Origin: Actinomycetes bacterium
GTDB taxonomy: Bacteria; Actinomycetota; Thermoleophilia; Solirubrobacterales; Solirubrobacteraceae
Direction: 5' to 3'
DNA: 43,124 nucleotides
NCBI GenBank assembly: GCA_021851525.1
Contig: JAJZDA010000008.1
Span: forward strand, 1-43,124
Under the pieces are notes generated by a model, which did no database searches, was not told the origin of the DNA, and saw nothing but the letters and a program-made list of their open reading frames with translations. The translations under genes were made by a program, and so were the position numbers. Positions 6,973 to 14,841 of this stretch are shown one piece after another (the first letter of the stretch is position 1; every line of letters begins with the position of its first letter).

Positions 6973-7842
6973 ATGACCGCGGTGAGCAGTCTCCTCGCAT
7001 ACATCCCGAGCCCGCCGAGCAACGGCTTCAACATCGGCCCGTTGTTCTTCCACGCGTACGGGATCGCATACGTGGTGGCGGTGGCTGTGGGGATCGTGAT
7101 CGTGCGCCGCCGCTGGCGGGCCGTGGGCGGTGACCCGGACCTCGTCTACGACGTGGCCAAGTGGGGCTTCCCGGCCGGGCTGGTGGGCGGCCGTATCTAC
7201 TTCCTGATCACAACCCCCAGCCAGATGCCCCAGCACTGGTGGGGGCCGTTCGCGATCTGGGACGGCGGCATGGGAATCTGGGGCGGGGTTGCGCTGGGCG
7301 TGGGCGTGGCCGTCTGGTACATGCGCAAGCGCCTCAGCTGGCCGCAGATCCTGCTGTTCATCAACGTCGCGACGCCGTCGCTGCTGGTCGGTCAGGCGAT
7401 CGGCAGGGTGGGCAACTACTTCAACCAGGAGCTCTTCGGCAAGCCCTCGACGCTGCCCTGGGCGCTCGAGATCTCACCCGCGCACCGTCCGCCCGGGTAT
7501 CAGCGCTACGCCACCTTCCAGCCGACCTTCCTCTACGAGATCATCTGGGATCTGGCGCTGGCCGGCGTGCTGATCTGGTTTGACAACCGGCGCAAGATCC
7601 GCCCGCCCGGCGTGTTCCCGCTGTACGTCGCCGGGTACTCGGCCTTCCGGATCTTCGAGGAGATGCTGCGCATCGACTACTCGCAGTACATCCTGGGGAT
7701 GCGCCTGAACTTCTGGGTGGCGCTGATCGGCACGATCGCCGGCCTGCTCTGGTTCCTCAGGACGCAGTTCCGTGGCGGACGCGACTCCGCAGCGGCGCAA
7801 GCTCAGGCCACGGCAGCGTATTCAGGACCTGACTCGGAGTGA
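6973..7842 (+). CDS. lgt: Prolipoprotein diacylglyceryl transferase
   Basis: Integral membrane enzyme that transfers diacylglycerol from phosphatidylglycerol to the lipobox cysteine of prelipoproteins. The Lgt signature is clear: G-R-V-G-N-Y-F-N-Q-E-L-F-G near residues 143-155, with a preceding W-D-G-G-M-G-I-W-G-G loop and a late F-R-I-F-E-E motif that matches the conserved Arg/Glu pair. About seven membrane segments can be seen. I chose the ATG at 6973, 4 nt after the preceding gene. The last 86 bp overlap the 3' end of polX on the other strand; the C-terminal 25 residues are polar and not conserved. Confidence 0.95.
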   Translation: MTAVSSLLAYIPSPPSNGFNIGPLFFHAYGIAYVVAVAVGIVIVRRRWRAVGGDPDLVYDVAKWGFPAGLVGGRIYFLITTPSQMPQHWWGPFAIWDGGMGIWGGVALGVGVAVWYMRKRLSWPQILLFINVATPSLLVGQAIGRVGNYFNQELFGKPSTLPWALEISPAHRPPGYQRYATFQPTFLYEIIWDLALAGVLIWFDNRRKIRPPGVFPLYVAGYSAFRIFEEMLRIDYSQYILGMRLNFWVALIGTIAGLLWFLRTQFRGGRDSAAAQAQATAAYSGPDSE

Positions 7843-9508
7843 GCCAGGCGCGGCGCGCGGTCGCCACCCCGTAGCGCGCCACGGCGAAGCCGTCGACGCG
7901 GTGGGCGTCGCTGTTGATCACGATCCCCACGCCGGCTGCCGCGGCCGCCCGCGCGCGTGCCTCGTCGATGTCACGCCGCTGCGGGCTGGCGTTGATCTCG
8001 AGCATCGTGCCGGTCGCCACCGCCGCCTCCAGCACCGCCTCGAAGTCGAGCTCGTAGGCGGGGCGCTGCTCGATCTTGCGCCCGCTGAGATGGCCCACGC
8101 AATCCACGTACGGGTGCTCGATCGCGGCGACGATGCGCCTGGTCATGTCCGCCGCGGACATCCTGAAGGAGGTGTGCACGCTGGCCACCACCCAGTCGAG
8201 CTGGGCCAGCAGCTCATCCGGGTAGTCAAGTGAACCATCGGGCAGGATGTTGACCTCCGATCCGGCCAGCAGCCGCAGGCCATCCAGCTGCCCGTCGAGC
8301 TCGCGCACCCGCTCGATCTGGGCCAGCAGTTGCTGCTCTGAGACGTCGGCGCCGAAGCCCATCGACGCGGAGTGGTCGGTGATCGCCAGGTACTCATAGC
8401 CGGCGTCGGCCGCGGACCGGGCCATCGCCTCCATCGTCGCGGTGCCGTCGGAGGCGAGCGTGTGCGCGTGCAGGTCGCCGCGCAGGTCCGCAACGCTCAC
8501 CAGCGCCGGCAGCGTGCCGGCCAGCGCCGCCTCGATCTCGCCGCGGTTCTCGCGCAGCTCCGGCTCGATGTAGCTCATCCCCAGCAGCCGGTAGACCTCC
8601 GCCTCATCGGCGCAGCGGTGGGTGATGCCGGTGGCGTCGTCCAGGATGCCGTACTCCGAGACATGCAGGCCGCGGCGCACCGCGTGCTCGCGCAGCGCGA
8701 CGTTGTGCTGCTTGGAGCCGGTGAGGTGCTGCAGCACGTTGCCGAACTGGTCGGGCTCGACGATCCGCAAGTCCACGTCCACGCCGCTGTGGGTGCGCAG
8801 CCGCACAGCGTTCTCGCCGGGGTTGGAGGACGCCTCCACCTGTGGCAGCACGGCCGCCGCCCGGGCCAGCGCCGGTGGGTCGCTGGCGGTGGCGATGATG
8901 TCCAGATCCTTGACGCTCTCCGTCATGCGCCTGGCCGACCCGGCCAGCTCCGCACGCTCGGTGAACGGCAGTGCCCGGATCTCACGCAGCAGCTCCTCAC
9001 CGATCCCCAGCGCCCGGTCGAGCAGCAGACGGCGCTGCGGGCCGGCCGCGGCGTGCGCCTCGAGCGCCTGCAGCAGTTGCGCCTCGGCGCGCTCTCCGAA
9101 GCCCTTGAGCTCACGGATCCGCCCGCCCTGCGCGGCGTCGCGCAGGGCCGCCAGCGAGTCGACCTGCAGCTCCTCGAAGAGCCGCCGCGCGCGCTTGGGC
9201 CCCAGCCCGGGGAGTCGTGTCATCTCCACGAGCCCCGCCGGGAAGCGGGCGCGCAGCTTCGCGAGCGCCGGGATCTCACCGGTTTCAATCAGCGCCTGGA
9301 TCTTCTCCTGGAGGGTCGCGCCGATTCCGGGGAGCTCGGTGGCGCGCCCCTCACGCGCGAGTGCCGCCAGCGAGGCCGACGCCTCACGTGCCGTGCGCGC
9401 GGCGTTGCGGTAGGCGACCACACGGTGGATCACCGCCCCGTCGAGCTCGTAGAGGTCCGCGAGCTCATCGAACGCGGCGGCGATCTCAGTGTTCGTCGGG
9501 TCCGGCAA
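7757..9508 (-). CDS. polX: DNA polymerase/3'-5' exonuclease PolX
   Basis: Family X DNA repair polymerase fused to a PHP metal-dependent nuclease domain, used in base-excision-type gap repair. Helix-hairpin-helix motifs L-P-G-I-G and L-P-G-L-G-P lie near residues 59 and 99. The polymerase catalytic motif G-S-A-R-R-x3-S-V-K-D-L-D (190-203) gives D201 and D203, and D246 is the third Asp. PHP residues are H347-A-H349, D378-H379, E418, H445, H473 and D534-A-H536. Length 583 aa matches the family. The only sensible start is a TTG at 9508, inside the last 23 bp of the FAD oxidoreductase gene; upstream in-frame codons read as a shadow of that gene. The 3' end overlaps lgt by 86 bp. Confidence 0.92.
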   Translation of the reverse strand: MPDPTNTEIAAAFDELADLYELDGAVIHRVVAYRNAARTAREASASLAALAREGRATELPGIGATLQEKIQALIETGEIPALAKLRARFPAGLVEMTRLPGLGPKRARRLFEELQVDSLAALRDAAQGGRIRELKGFGERAEAQLLQALEAHAAAGPQRRLLLDRALGIGEELLREIRALPFTERAELAGSARRMTESVKDLDIIATASDPPALARAAAVLPQVEASSNPGENAVRLRTHSGVDVDLRIVEPDQFGNVLQHLTGSKQHNVALREHAVRRGLHVSEYGILDDATGITHRCADEAEVYRLLGMSYIEPELRENRGEIEAALAGTLPALVSVADLRGDLHAHTLASDGTATMEAMARSAADAGYEYLAITDHSASMGFGADVSEQQLLAQIERVRELDGQLDGLRLLAGSEVNILPDGSLDYPDELLAQLDWVVASVHTSFRMSAADMTRRIVAAIEHPYVDCVGHLSGRKIEQRPAYELDFEAVLEAAVATGTMLEINASPQRRDIDEARARAAAAAGVGIVINSDAHRVDGFAVARYGVATARRAWLTPSQVLNTLPWPELAPLRSRVRHGTAS

Positions 9509-10970
9509 CCCGCTCGCTGCCTCGGTCGGCGGAGCTGGTCGGGTCGAGCCCGGCCAGCAGCTTGGTGATCGGTCCCGGGCGCATGTGCAGGTCCTCCGCC
9601 CGCTCCTTGCGGGCGATCGCCGCGCGCACCGCGCGGCCACCGAGGTAGCGCAGCGGCTCCGGCGGCAGCGGCGCGCTGGGCACGGTGCGCAGCGCCCGGG
9701 GCAGGTCGCCGTCGCCGAGCCCGGTCGCCATCTCTGCCAGCACCTCTCCAGCGAGCCTCGAGGGCCCGACGCCGTCGCCGGAGAAGCCGGCGCAGACCAG
9801 CACGCTGGGCGCGTCGCGCAGGCGCACAAAGAACGGCATTCCGCTCAGCGAGTAGTCGATCGGTCCGCTCCAGCTGTCGGCGATCGCCACGTCCCACAGC
9901 GACGGGTAGGTGCGCACCAGCTGGCTGCGGATCGCCGCTGCGCGGCGTCCCGGGTGGTCGAAGTTGCGGCCGATGGCGTTGGCGTATGCGAGCGTCCCGC
10001 CGCCCTTGCCGAACACCATCCGTCCATCGAGCGTGGGGCGGTAGTAGTTGACCAGGCGCCTGCTGTCGGAGACGCAGACACCACGGTTCATGCCGATCGC
10101 CGCCAGGCGCTCGGGCACCGGCACGGTCGCGATCACGTCACTGGCGACGACCACCAGGCCCGCGCCGATCTCAGGGATCTGCGCCGCCCAGGCGTTGGCC
10201 GCCAGGACCACCTGGTCGGCGTTGACGGAGCCGCGCGCCAGCACCACGCTGGTGTGCTGCCCGTGCTCGATCGAGGCCACCTGGCTGTGCTCGTGGATGC
10301 GCACGCCGGCGTTGTGAGCGGCCCGCGCCAGCGCCCGCGCCAGCCGCGCCGGCTGCACCGCCGCGGAGATCGGCTCAAACAGACCGTCGAGGTGCTGCGC
10401 GGAGCCGGCCAGCTCCGCGATCTGAGCGCGGCTGCGGGGCTCATACGGAGCGACGCCGAAGCGCTCCAGCAGCTTGACGGTCTGCTCCCAGTCGCCGACC
10501 TGCTGGGCGTTGGTGGCGGCCCACACCCAACCCTGCATCTGGAAGGCGTCGGCGATCTGGTGGCGCTCGCAGAACTCGCCGATCTGCTGCACAGCGCGCT
10601 GGGCCCGCTGGCCCAGCTTGACCGCCTCCTCAGGACCGCACAGCTCCACCAGGTGCTGGAAGTGCGCCCACCAGGTCAGCGCAAAGCCGCCGTTGCGCCC
10701 GCTGGCGCCGGCACCGCAGATGTCGGCCTCCAGCAGCGTGACGTCGGTCTCGGGCGCGATCCGCTTGATCTCGAGTGCGGTCCACAGGCCGGTGAAGCCG
10801 CCGCCGATGATGCACACGTCGGTCTTGGTTGCGCCCTCGAACTGCGGGTAGTCGTAGGAGTCGCCGCCGTCCAGCGCCTCGCGCAACCACAGTGAGCGCC
10901 CGCCGCTGGTCTGTACGCGTCGGCGTGAAAGCCGGATGATGCCGGTTGCTCCGCGGCTGATGCTTGCCAT
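9486..10970 (-). CDS. FAD-dependent oxidoreductase (DAO/PuuB-like)
   Basis: Flavoprotein of the D-amino-acid oxidase (DAO) superfamily, closest in style to gamma-glutamylputrescine oxidases and related amine oxidases. The Rossmann dinucleotide motif is V-C-I-I-G-G-G-F-T-G (52-61), followed by E81 at the second strand and the A-S-G-R-N-G-G motif at about 89-95 that is typical of the PuuB/OrdL group; a C-terminal F-S-G-D-G-V-G motif closes the FAD site. The product is 494 aa. I chose the ATG at 10970; an upstream in-frame ATG at 11048 lies inside the 52-bp palindrome. polX follows on the same strand with an overlapping start. Substrate is unknown. Confidence 0.85.
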   Translation of the reverse strand: MASISRGATGIIRLSRRRVQTSGGRSLWLREALDGGDSYDYPQFEGATKTDVCIIGGGFTGLWTALEIKRIAPETDVTLLEADICGAGASGRNGGFALTWWAHFQHLVELCGPEEAVKLGQRAQRAVQQIGEFCERHQIADAFQMQGWVWAATNAQQVGDWEQTVKLLERFGVAPYEPRSRAQIAELAGSAQHLDGLFEPISAAVQPARLARALARAAHNAGVRIHEHSQVASIEHGQHTSVVLARGSVNADQVVLAANAWAAQIPEIGAGLVVVASDVIATVPVPERLAAIGMNRGVCVSDSRRLVNYYRPTLDGRMVFGKGGGTLAYANAIGRNFDHPGRRAAAIRSQLVRTYPSLWDVAIADSWSGPIDYSLSGMPFFVRLRDAPSVLVCAGFSGDGVGPSRLAGEVLAEMATGLGDGDLPRALRTVPSAPLPPEPLRYLGGRAVRAAIARKERAEDLHMRPGPITKLLAGLDPTSSADRGSERVAGPDEH

Positions 10971-11028
10971 CGACGCACAGCATGACGCCTGCGGCTTTGC
11001 GCTGCAGGCGCAAGCAAGCGCTGGCCTT

Positions 11029-11080
11029 CCGCCGTTGAGGAGTGCCACGGCCGGCCGGCCGTGGCACTCCTCAACGGCGG
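11029..11080. repeat. Perfect 52-bp palindrome
   Basis: The left 26 bp (beginning CCGCCGTTGAGGAGTGCC) are the exact reverse complement of the right 26 bp, with no spacer. Its centre is CCGG/CCGG at 11054/11055. The symmetry stops at 11028/11081. It lies between divergent genes, so it is badly placed as a terminator of either. Confidence 0.95.
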
Positions 11081-11205
11081 GTCGGCGCTCGGCGCCCCGG
11101 CGCCCCGCGGGCCTGGCCGGCTGCCCCCGGCCGCTGGCTGACGGCCGGGCCTGCCACTAGGCTGGCGACAGGGCGCAGCCCCGCGACCCACGCGCAGGGT
11201 GGCGC

Positions 11206-11240
11206 TATACTTTTTGAAGCAAGCGAGTATTGAAGAGGAG
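11206..11240 (+). promoter_or_regulatory. trxA promoter and Shine-Dalgarno
   Basis: TATACT at 11206-11211 is a good -10 box, with no clear -35. GAAGAGGAG at 11232-11240 is a Shine-Dalgarno 5 nt before the ATG. Unlike many genes here, trxA has an mRNA leader of about 25-30 nt. Confidence 0.65.
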
Positions 11241-11245
11241 CCCGA

Positions 11246-11575
11246 ATGGCCGGCATCGTTTCCGAAGTCACCGACAACAACTTCCAGGCGGAGGTGCTCG
11301 AGTCCGACGTTCCGGTGCTCGTGGACTTCTGGGCACCGTGGTGCGGTCCGTGCCGTCAGGTCGCCCCGGTAGTCGAGGAGATCGCCAACGAGAGATCCGG
11401 TCAGCTGAAGGTCTCGAAGCTCAACACCGACGAGAACCAGCAGACGGCGATCAAGTACAACGTGCTGTCGATCCCGACCCTGATCGTCTTCAAGGGCGGC
11501 CAGGAGGTCAAGCGCGTCGTCGGCGCCTACCCCAAGCGCCGGCTCGAGGCTGAGATCGAGCCCGCCATCGCCTGA
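11246..11575 (+). CDS. trxA: Thioredoxin
   Basis: Cytoplasmic thiol-disulfide reductant for ribonucleotide reductase, peroxiredoxins and other partners. The active site W-C-G-P-C is at residues 32-36 within F-W-A-P-W-C-G-P-C, and the cis-proline is in S-I-P-T-L near residue 73. Length of 109 aa is typical and there is no signal peptide. It stands as a single gene with its own -10 box, Shine-Dalgarno and a strong downstream stem-loop. No trxB is in the window. Confidence 0.97.
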
Positions 11576-11617: not shown

Positions 11618-11659
11618 GCGTGGGGGTCGGGCCGGTGTCCACCGGCCCGACCCCCACGC
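11618..11659. terminator. Bidirectional terminator, trxA/pxpC
   Basis: A perfect 19-bp stem (GCGTGGGGGTCGGGCCGGT and its complement) with a GTCC loop lies between convergent trxA and pxpC. No U-tract follows. Its position and strength make it the likely terminator for both. Confidence 0.8.
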
Positions 11660-13335: not shown

Positions 13336-14093
13336 GTGAACGGCCGGATCTCGGCACCGGCGCCTATCAGGTGGTCGCGCAACCGCCGTGCCAGCTCGGC
13401 CGCCCCGGGGGTGTCGCTGTGCACGCACAGCGAGCGCACGCGCAGCGGCACCTCGCCGCCATCCAGCGCCGGCGCGCGCTGGGCGAAGGTGATCTCCCGC
13501 GCCTGTGCGAGGGCCGCCTCGACGCTCAGCAGCGCTCCCGCCCGGGTGCGCGGCGCGAGCGCGCCGCCGGCCAGGTAGGCACGGTCCGCGAAGCCCTCCG
13601 CCACGCCGCTGAGCCCGGCCGCGTCGGCGGCGCGCAGCAGCTCTGAGTCCGGCATGCCGAGCAGCGCCAGGCTGCGGTCGACGCTGGCCACGGCCTCGAC
13701 GATCGTCCTGGCGACGCTCGCATCGCCGCAGGCACGGTGGTAGAGCGCGCCGTGCGGCTTGACGTAGCGCACCTCACCACCGGCCACGCGTGCGGCCACG
13801 CGCAGTGCGCCGATCTGCGCGACCACGTGCTCCTGCAGCCGCGCTGCCGGGACCTCCAGCTCGCGCCGCCCGAAGCCCTCCGGGTCCAGATAGGAGACGT
13901 GTGCGCCGATGCGCTTGTGGAGCGCCACCGCCAGCGCGCAGACGGCCTGCATCGTGGCGCCGTCGCCGGCGTGGTAGCCGCAGGCGACGTTGGCGCTGGA
14001 GACGTAGCGCAGCAGCTCCGCGTCGGCGGCCAGACCGGCGTCCCCCGGCCGCTCGCCGAGGTCCGCGTTGAGGTCGATCAGGATCGCAGGCAC
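13332..14093 (-). CDS. pxpA: 5-oxoprolinase subunit A (LamB/YcsF family)
   Basis: PxpA subunit of 5-oxoprolinase. The N-terminal I-D-L-N-A-D-L-G-E and the following S-S-A-N-V-A-C-G-Y-H-A-G-D motif are diagnostic of the LamB/YcsF family, and V-K-P-H-G-A-L-Y-H near residue 117 is also conserved. The GTG at 14093 is chosen because the family begins a few residues before I-D-L-N; codons upstream would run into the divergent DUF402 gene. The gene order A-B-C with a 4-nt overlap and a short gap defines one operon. This pathway recycles pyroglutamate formed by spontaneous cyclisation of glutamine and peptides. Confidence 0.94.
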   Translation of the reverse strand: MPAILIDLNADLGERPGDAGLAADAELLRYVSSANVACGYHAGDGATMQAVCALAVALHKRIGAHVSYLDPEGFGRRELEVPAARLQEHVVAQIGALRVAARVAGGEVRYVKPHGALYHRACGDASVARTIVEAVASVDRSLALLGMPDSELLRAADAAGLSGVAEGFADRAYLAGGALAPRTRAGALLSVEAALAQAREITFAQRAPALDGGEVPLRVRSLCVHSDTPGAAELARRLRDHLIGAGAEIRPFT

Positions 14094-14101
14094 CGGTGCA
14101 C

Positions 14102-14107
14102 TAAGTT
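14102..14107 (+). promoter_or_regulatory. TAAGTT -10-like hexamer before the DUF402 gene
   Basis: TAAGTT lies 8 nt before the GTG at 14116 and there is no Shine-Dalgarno. The same AT-rich patch may also serve pxpA on the other strand. Confidence 0.4.
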
Positions 14108-14115
14108 TCGTATAC

Positions 14116-14841
14116 GTGAGCGTCGAGCACTGGCTTCCCGGCACCGAGATCACCTGGCGCTACGAGCATCATGACGGCCGCCACTGGGAGTACGGCGTGC
14201 GCGTGATCCGTGACGACGCGGCGGCGCTCGTCGTCTGGCAGCCGATGGGCGCTCCGATGCGCGACACGATCCGGGTCGACGGGCGCTCGTTGCGCGCCCA
14301 CAAGCCGACCATGTTCAGCGCCCCCACCCGGGTGGTGGACACGGTCTGGAAGCGCACCAGCATCCTGCGGATCGCGATGCCCGGCCGCGCCTGGTCTGTG
14401 TGGGTCTATTTCGACGGCGCCAGCGGTGCCTTTCAGGGGTGGTACGGCAACGTCGAGCTCCCCTACTGGCGTGAGGCGGATGCCGTCATCAGCCGTGACG
14501 AGGTGCTGGACGTGGTGATCGCGCCCGACCGCACGACGCGGCGCAAGGACGAGGATGAGCTCGAGCTCGCGGTCCAGCACGGCCTCTACAGCGAGGCGCA
14601 GGCACGGCAGATCATCGCCACCGCGCAGGAGATAGAGGCGGCGGTCAGCGCCTGGGAGTCGCCGTTCTGTGACGGCTGGGAGCGCTTCAGACCGGATCCC
14701 GGCTGGCCGATCCCGCGTCTGCGCGCAGGCGGCGCGCAGACACCTTCCGCGCCCTCCGCGCCCTCCGCGCCCTCGGCGCCTTCCGCGCCCTCCGCACCCT
14801 CGGCACCTTCCGCGCCCTCCGCACCTTCCGCGCCCTCCTGA
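14116..14841 (+). CDS. DUF402 protein with Pro-Ser-Ala repeat tail
   Basis: Belongs to the DUF402 (FomD-like) family; some members are nucleoside diphosphate/phosphonate-nucleotide hydrolases but this one is uncharacterised. The domain spans about residues 15-190, with W-K-R-T-S near 76, W-S-V-W-V-Y-F-D near 95-102 and W-Y-G-N-V-E-L-P-Y near 112-120. The last about 32 residues are a Pro-Ser-Ala tandem repeat with no homologous function that I can name. The GTG at 14116 is chosen from the domain start and from TAAGTT upstream. Length 241 aa is longer than usual only because of the tail. Confidence 0.82.
   Translation: MSVEHWLPGTEITWRYEHHDGRHWEYGVRVIRDDAAALVVWQPMGAPMRDTIRVDGRSLRAHKPTMFSAPTRVVDTVWKRTSILRIAMPGRAWSVWVYFDGASGAFQGWYGNVELPYWREADAVISRDEVLDVVIAPDRTTRRKDEDELELAVQHGLYSEAQARQIIATAQEIEAAVSAWESPFCDGWERFRPDPGWPIPRLRAGGAQTPSAPSAPSAPSAPSAPSAPSAPSAPSAPSAPS
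14743..14841 (+). repeat. 9-bp in-frame minisatellite
   Basis: Eleven 9-bp units (CCTTCCGCG, CCCTCCGCG and variants) run to the stop codon, and the last unit supplies the TGA. They encode a Pro-Ser-Ala repeat at the C-terminus of the DUF402 protein. Confidence 0.95.

What the first reader, a model, noticed from the sequence alone, without database searches (positions are those of the whole stretch)
11029..11080. Perfect 52-bp palindrome without spacer between divergent genes
Zero-spacer perfect palindromes of this length are usually unstable in bacteria, and there is no mismatch across 26 bp per arm. It lies where it cannot terminate either neighbouring gene. It may extrude as a cruciform, bind a dimeric regulator, be the leader hairpin of the FAD oxidoreductase mRNA, or be a recent inverted duplication.
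Basis: seen in the sequence. Interest (0 to 1): 0.55.

Follow-up and report, generated by a model that had tools for sequence, protein, structure and literature searches.

The report
Replication-slip palindrome between two genes
A perfect 52-base mirror-like DNA sequence really does sit between two oppositely oriented genes of an uncultured actinobacterium, but it is probably an ordinary copying accident of a kind found at several other places in the same genome, and no function is shown for it.

Summary
In detail: 11029-11080 is a perfect, spacer-free 52-bp palindrome, present once in the 3.44-Mb draft genome (order Solirubrobacterales, inferred) and far beyond chance. It lies between divergent FAD-oxidoreductase (9486-10970, -) and thioredoxin (11246-11575, +) genes, upstream of both inferred promoters, so in neither mRNA.

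The gene pair is conserved in seven other species of the genus, none of which has a palindrome. Their promoter-to-promoter gap is 39-64 bp, against 218 bp here, so the palindrome is in lineage-specific DNA.

In 839 kb of this genome, long perfect hairpins are common: 49 with arms of at least 13 bp. Most intergenic ones lie just after stop codons, as terminators would. They also occur inside genes, about 15 times more often than synonymous shuffling gives. In a cyclase gene one 21-nt arm aligns as a 7-codon insertion absent from eight orthologues, an inverted copy of its neighbour. Another gene has perfect but different hairpins at the same site in two species.

Best explanation: an inverted copy made by replication template switching, tolerated in non-coding DNA. 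The origin is inferred by analogy. Function is probably absent; a bidirectional transcription block is the main functional rival. Low interest.

The parts
11029..11080 (.). perfect spacer-free palindrome, 26-bp arms; as RNA a 24-bp stem with a 4-nt loop
11017..11089 (.). imperfect outer extension of the inverted repeat (AGCGCTGGCC 11017-11026 against 11080-11089, 8/10, two G-U pairs in the + strand RNA); weak
   Evidence: z -9.25 on +, -7.95 on -; chance about 2%
10988..11205 (.). 218-bp spacer between the two inferred promoter elements; 39-64 bp in seven relatives, so about 155-180 bp is lineage-specific
10979..10984 (-). inferred -10-like element CATGCT of the FAD oxidoreductase gene, inside the motif CGTCATSCTG conserved in 8 genomes, 6-9 nt before the start codon
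   Evidence: function inferred
9486..10970 (-). FAD-dependent oxidoreductase (DAO family, nearest NCBIfam model TIGR03329 but below its cut-off)
11206..11211 (+). inferred -10 element TATACT of the thioredoxin gene, conserved in the genus
11246..11575 (+). thioredoxin gene
   Evidence: TIGR01068 above cut-off
11618..11659 (.). 20-bp-arm, 2-nt-loop hairpin after the thioredoxin stop codon, between convergent genes; probable bidirectional terminator, without T-run

Best explanation
The palindrome is most likely a local inverted copy made by template switching during DNA replication. The nascent strand stalls at a short imperfect inverted repeat, folds back, copies itself for about 26 nt and returns to its template, leaving a perfect hairpin. 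It happened in lineage-specific spacer DNA upstream of both divergent promoters, where no coding sequence or transcript is disturbed, and it has been tolerated. Shown: perfection, uniqueness, absence in relatives, position outside the conserved promoter motifs, and an excess of perfect hairpins inside genes of the same genome, some of which align as inverted copies. Inferred: that this palindrome arose by the same process, and that it has no essential function.
For: Seven genus members keep the FAD gene/thioredoxin pair (61-75% protein identity) without a palindrome, with a promoter gap of 39-64 bp against 218 bp. In 839 kb of this genome 49 perfect hairpins have arms of at least 13 bp; a geometric tail predicts about 0.4-0.6 with arms of at least 26, so the longest one is not out of line. 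Inside genes there are 17 with arms of at least 13 bp, against a mean of about 1 (range 0-3) in ten synonymous-codon shuffles. Case 1: in a cyclase gene the second 21-nt arm aligns as a 7-codon insertion absent from eight orthologues. Case 2: in tilS the 15-bp-arm hairpin is absent from 21 orthologue sequences; one arm lies in the conserved LRxLP stretch and the other is its mirror in non-conserved codons. Case 3: a membrane-protein gene has perfect 18/3 and 17/3 hairpins at the same codons in G000 and G026 that differ at five positions, all compensated, while five other orthologues have none. The mechanism is known in E. coli (PMC7202029) and is reported to create perfect hairpins in one event (PMC8794818).
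Against: The spacer itself cannot be aligned with relatives, so the ancestral arm is not identified and the argument is by analogy. The lineage-specific DNA is about 155-180 bp, much more than one 26-nt arm, so other events took part. Most intergenic hairpins of this kind follow stop codons (23 of 31 within 100 bp), where selection for termination is the simpler reading, so a functional hairpin cannot be excluded.
Confidence: 0.62

Rival explanations
1. It is a bidirectional, T-run-free hairpin terminator or insulator that blocks antisense or stray transcription from either side, so that the two divergent promoters do not read into each other.
For: Perfect hairpins of the same build are strongly concentrated at gene 3' ends in this genome (32-42 per 100 kb against 2.7 in genes, arms of at least 13); the thioredoxin gene itself ends in one. 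A palindrome gives the same RNA hairpin on both strands.
Against: Neither neighbour can be terminated there; no promoter is known that reads into it; divergent spacers hold fewer such hairpins (13 per 100 kb, and this is the only one there with arms of at least 15); no T-run; absent from seven relatives with the same pair.
Confidence: 0.2
2. It is an operator for a dimeric or tetrameric regulator controlling both divergent genes.
For: It lies between two divergent promoters, about 60-110 bp from the FAD gene start; symmetric sites between divergent genes are a classic layout (general knowledge).
Against: 52 perfect bases are far more than a protein reads; the core has no other site within 2 mismatches in the genome; not conserved in relatives although both promoters are.
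Confidence: 0.08
3. It is an assembly or amplification artefact (fold-back chimera).
For: The genome is a draft of 267 contigs, probably from a metagenome; palindromes trouble short-read assembly.
Against: The gene order across the palindrome is conserved in seven independent genomes; sequence continues on both sides for more than 11 kb; a fold-back would normally mirror longer flanks; similar hairpins occur across many contigs and keep reading frames open.
Confidence: 0.04
4. It is a leader hairpin of the FAD oxidoreductase mRNA.
For: It is 58 bp upstream of the ATG and folds strongly.
Against: A conserved motif CGTCATSCTG 6-9 nt before the start codon in all eight genomes suggests a leaderless or nearly leaderless mRNA starting after the palindrome.
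Confidence: 0.05

Closest known systems
Palindromes made by quasipalindrome-associated template switching (E. coli thyA hotspot and lacZ reporters, PMC7202029; RNA-gene stems, PMC8794818)
   Same: Perfect short-spaced inverted repeat, absent in relatives, in a genome where hairpins inside genes look like inverted copies.
   Different: The ancestral sequence of this very site is not known, so the switch points cannot be drawn.
Inverted repeats of bacterial intrinsic terminators (E. coli map of inverted repeats, PMC6060812)
   Same: Long GC-rich hairpin like those after stop codons in this genome.
   Different: Lies between divergent genes, upstream of both promoters, no T-run, no transcript known to end there.
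Coding palindromes of Nematomorpha mitochondrial genes (PMC6649704; abstract only)
   Same: Perfect inverted repeats also sit inside coding sequence, as in this genome.
   Different: Those reach 284 bp and are mitochondrial; here coding ones reach 21-bp arms and the palindrome in question is non-coding.

Membership tests
Template-switch (quasipalindrome) product | Perfect, closely spaced inverted repeat | tested here: met
Template-switch (quasipalindrome) product | Derived state: symmetry absent in relatives at the same locus | tested here: met
   seven genomes
Template-switch (quasipalindrome) product | One arm matches the ancestral sequence and the other is its inverted copy | tested here: inconclusive
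   spacer not alignable with relatives; seen at coding sites of the same genome
Template-switch (quasipalindrome) product | Process active in the genome | tested here: met
   17 coding hairpins with arms of at least 13 against about 1 expected; insertion and compensated cases; inferred from patterns
Intrinsic terminator | GC-rich stem-loop | tested here: met
Intrinsic terminator | T-run after the stem | tested here: not met
Intrinsic terminator | Located downstream of a gene it ends | tested here: not met
   divergent neighbours
Intrinsic terminator | Transcripts end at it | not testable with these tools
   no RNA data
Regulator operator | Site recurs or is conserved in front of regulated genes | tested here: not met
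Mobile repeat (REP, MITE) | Multiple copies in the genome | tested here: not met
   no match in plasmids or phages

The most novel reading that the evidence does not exclude
This lineage may build and homogenise perfect hairpins by template switching at an unusually high rate, in genes as well as between them, so that paired 'compensatory' changes arise without any selection on RNA structure. The 52-bp palindrome would be the longest product in the sampled quarter of the genome. One gene already shows five compensated differences between two species at a coding site.
Probability: 0.3. Interest if true: 0.45.

Novelty: new member of a known kind. Interest (0 to 1): 0.22.

Why it matters
It shows that a striking perfect palindrome need not be a regulatory site. 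If the process is as active as the coding examples suggest, this genus offers a natural test of how replication template switching makes perfect stems, and it warns that covariation alone may overstate evidence for functional RNA structure.

Tried and rejected
Copies elsewhere: none in the own genome, viral contigs (exact arm), plasmids or phages. Rfam: no match in the window. A first protein scan of named genomes found nothing; the alignment scan gave named relatives, Solirubrobacterales MAGs. A CIRCE-like operator was considered and dropped: the half-site order is reversed (GAGTGC before GCACTC; from memory of the consensus). A 9-bp direct repeat AAGCAAGCG around 11013 and 11217 was considered as a target-site duplication and dropped, because the conserved thioredoxin -10 box lies between the copies. 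Loss of SbcCD as the reason for tolerance is not supported: only a weak sub-threshold SbcD match in the own genome, but the nearest relative G026, with a full match, has a coding hairpin too. The coding hairpin in the SMC-like gene could not be tested: its only relative in the genus covers residues 1-357, not the site. One early script used a shifted reading frame for the FAD protein; identities quoted are.

Full report
Observation. The window is contig C255 of a 3.44-Mb, 267-contig draft genome. The 26-bp arms at 11029-11054 and 11055-11080 are perfectly complementary with no spacer. The chance expectation for the whole genome is about 5e-7. The arm is single copy and no other place matches an 18-nt core within 2 mismatches. 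As RNA it would be a 24-bp stem with a 4-nt loop, so 'no spacer' only means that the 4-nt loop happens to be self-complementary.

Setting. On the minus strand is an FAD-dependent oxidoreductase of the DAO family, ATG at 10970. On the plus strand is a thioredoxin, ATG at 11246. The named genomes nearest by the oxidoreductase are Solirubrobacterales MAGs. Seven other species of the genus keep this divergent pair, with oxidoreductase identity of 61-75%.

Promoters. All eight genomes share CGTCATSCTG just before the oxidoreductase start and a TATACT-like box before thioredoxin. These look like -10 elements; this is inference, and the consensus scan, which needs a -35 hexamer too, found no promoter. 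The gap between the motifs is 218 bp here and 39-64 bp in the others. No relative has even an 8-bp perfect hairpin (loop up to 12) in the 330-nt stretch before thioredoxin. The palindrome is therefore in lineage-specific DNA upstream of both promoters and, if the promoters are right, in neither mRNA.

Genome context. I surveyed 839 kb of the same genome. Perfect hairpins with arms of at least 13 bp and loops of at most 8 number 49. Per 100 kb they are 42 in convergent, 32 in tandem and 13 in divergent spacers, and 2.7 in genes. Of the 31 intergenic ones, 23 lie within 100 bp downstream of a stop codon. That is the distribution expected of terminators, as reported for E. coli (PMC6060812). Gene calls are my own codon-usage calls, not curated. 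The palindrome is the longest, and the only one with arms of at least 15 bp in a divergent spacer. A geometric fit expects about 0.4-0.6 of that length in the sample, so its length is the tail of a distribution, not an exception. Another phylum has a comparable one, 26-bp arms and a 2-nt loop in an Iodobacter MAG, L219.

Hairpins inside genes. These help to separate selection for termination from a mutational cause. There are 17 with arms of at least 13 bp, against 0-3 in ten synonymous shuffles. In a cyclase gene the 21-bp-arm hairpin coincides with a 7-codon insertion missing in eight orthologues; the second arm is the mirror of the first. In tilS one arm of a 15-bp-arm hairpin lies in the conserved LRxLP stretch and the other is its mirror in non-conserved codons, with no such hairpin in 21 orthologue sequences. 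In a membrane-protein gene both G000 and its relative G026 have perfect hairpins at the same codons. Their arms differ at five positions, all compensated, and five other orthologues have none. In hutF the hairpin is absent from orthologues, although G004 has a different one in the same variable stretch. These patterns fit template switching, which is established in E. coli (PMC7202029) and reported to make and mend perfect stems in one event (PMC8794818).

Conclusion. By analogy, the 52-bp palindrome most likely arose by the same process in spacer DNA. I could not align the spacer, so the ancestral arm is not shown. The extra 155-180 bp also needs further events. A bidirectional transcription block remains possible (0.2); an operator (0.08), a leader hairpin (0.05) and an artefact (0.04) are unlikely.

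Stability. The E. coli study I read deals with 246-460 bp palindromes and quotes an in vitro lower limit of 20-36 bp for SbcCD hairpin cleavage (PMC4245961). That limit is below 52 bp, so sensitivity cannot be excluded. In the own genome only a weak, sub-threshold SbcD match was found, but I draw no conclusion from it.

Noticed in passing
L087:618-656 (G000:C55) and L299 (G026:C33): A membrane-protein gene has perfect hairpins (18/3 and 17/3) at the same codons in two species with five differences in the arms, all compensated; five other orthologues have none. Looks like covariation without RNA selection.
   Followed up: partly
L091:19087-19132 (G000:C59): Cyclase gene with a 7-codon insertion, absent from eight orthologues, that makes a perfect 21-bp-arm hairpin; reading frame kept.
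   Followed up: yes
L009:2368-2419 (G024) and L019:757-808 (G006); L254:3776-3825 (G024) and L259:189-234 (G006): Pairs of long perfect hairpins that share a core but differ in symmetric ways; the first pair lies about 420-500 nt downstream of thioredoxin in both species. Probable conserved terminators.
   Followed up: no
window 11618-11659: 20-bp-arm hairpin with a 2-nt loop and no T-run between the convergent thioredoxin and carboxyltransferase-domain genes.
   Followed up: partly
window 9486-11246 and loci L006, L011, L014, L017, L018: In other genus members a gene that by its sequence looks like the PolX/PHP-type gene (window 7757-9829) appears directly divergent from thioredoxin; the FAD gene sits between the two only in some species.
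   Followed up: no
G000:C58 (L090:4702-7365 and C58:8222-8503): SMC/Rad50-like ATPase near a weak, partial SbcD match; an above-cut-off SbcD model match was found in only 2 of 28 genomes of the genus.
   Followed up: partly
window 14700-14841: The predicted protein at 14068-14841 ends in a run of about a dozen Ala-Pro-Ser repeats (APSAPSAPS...).
   Followed up: no
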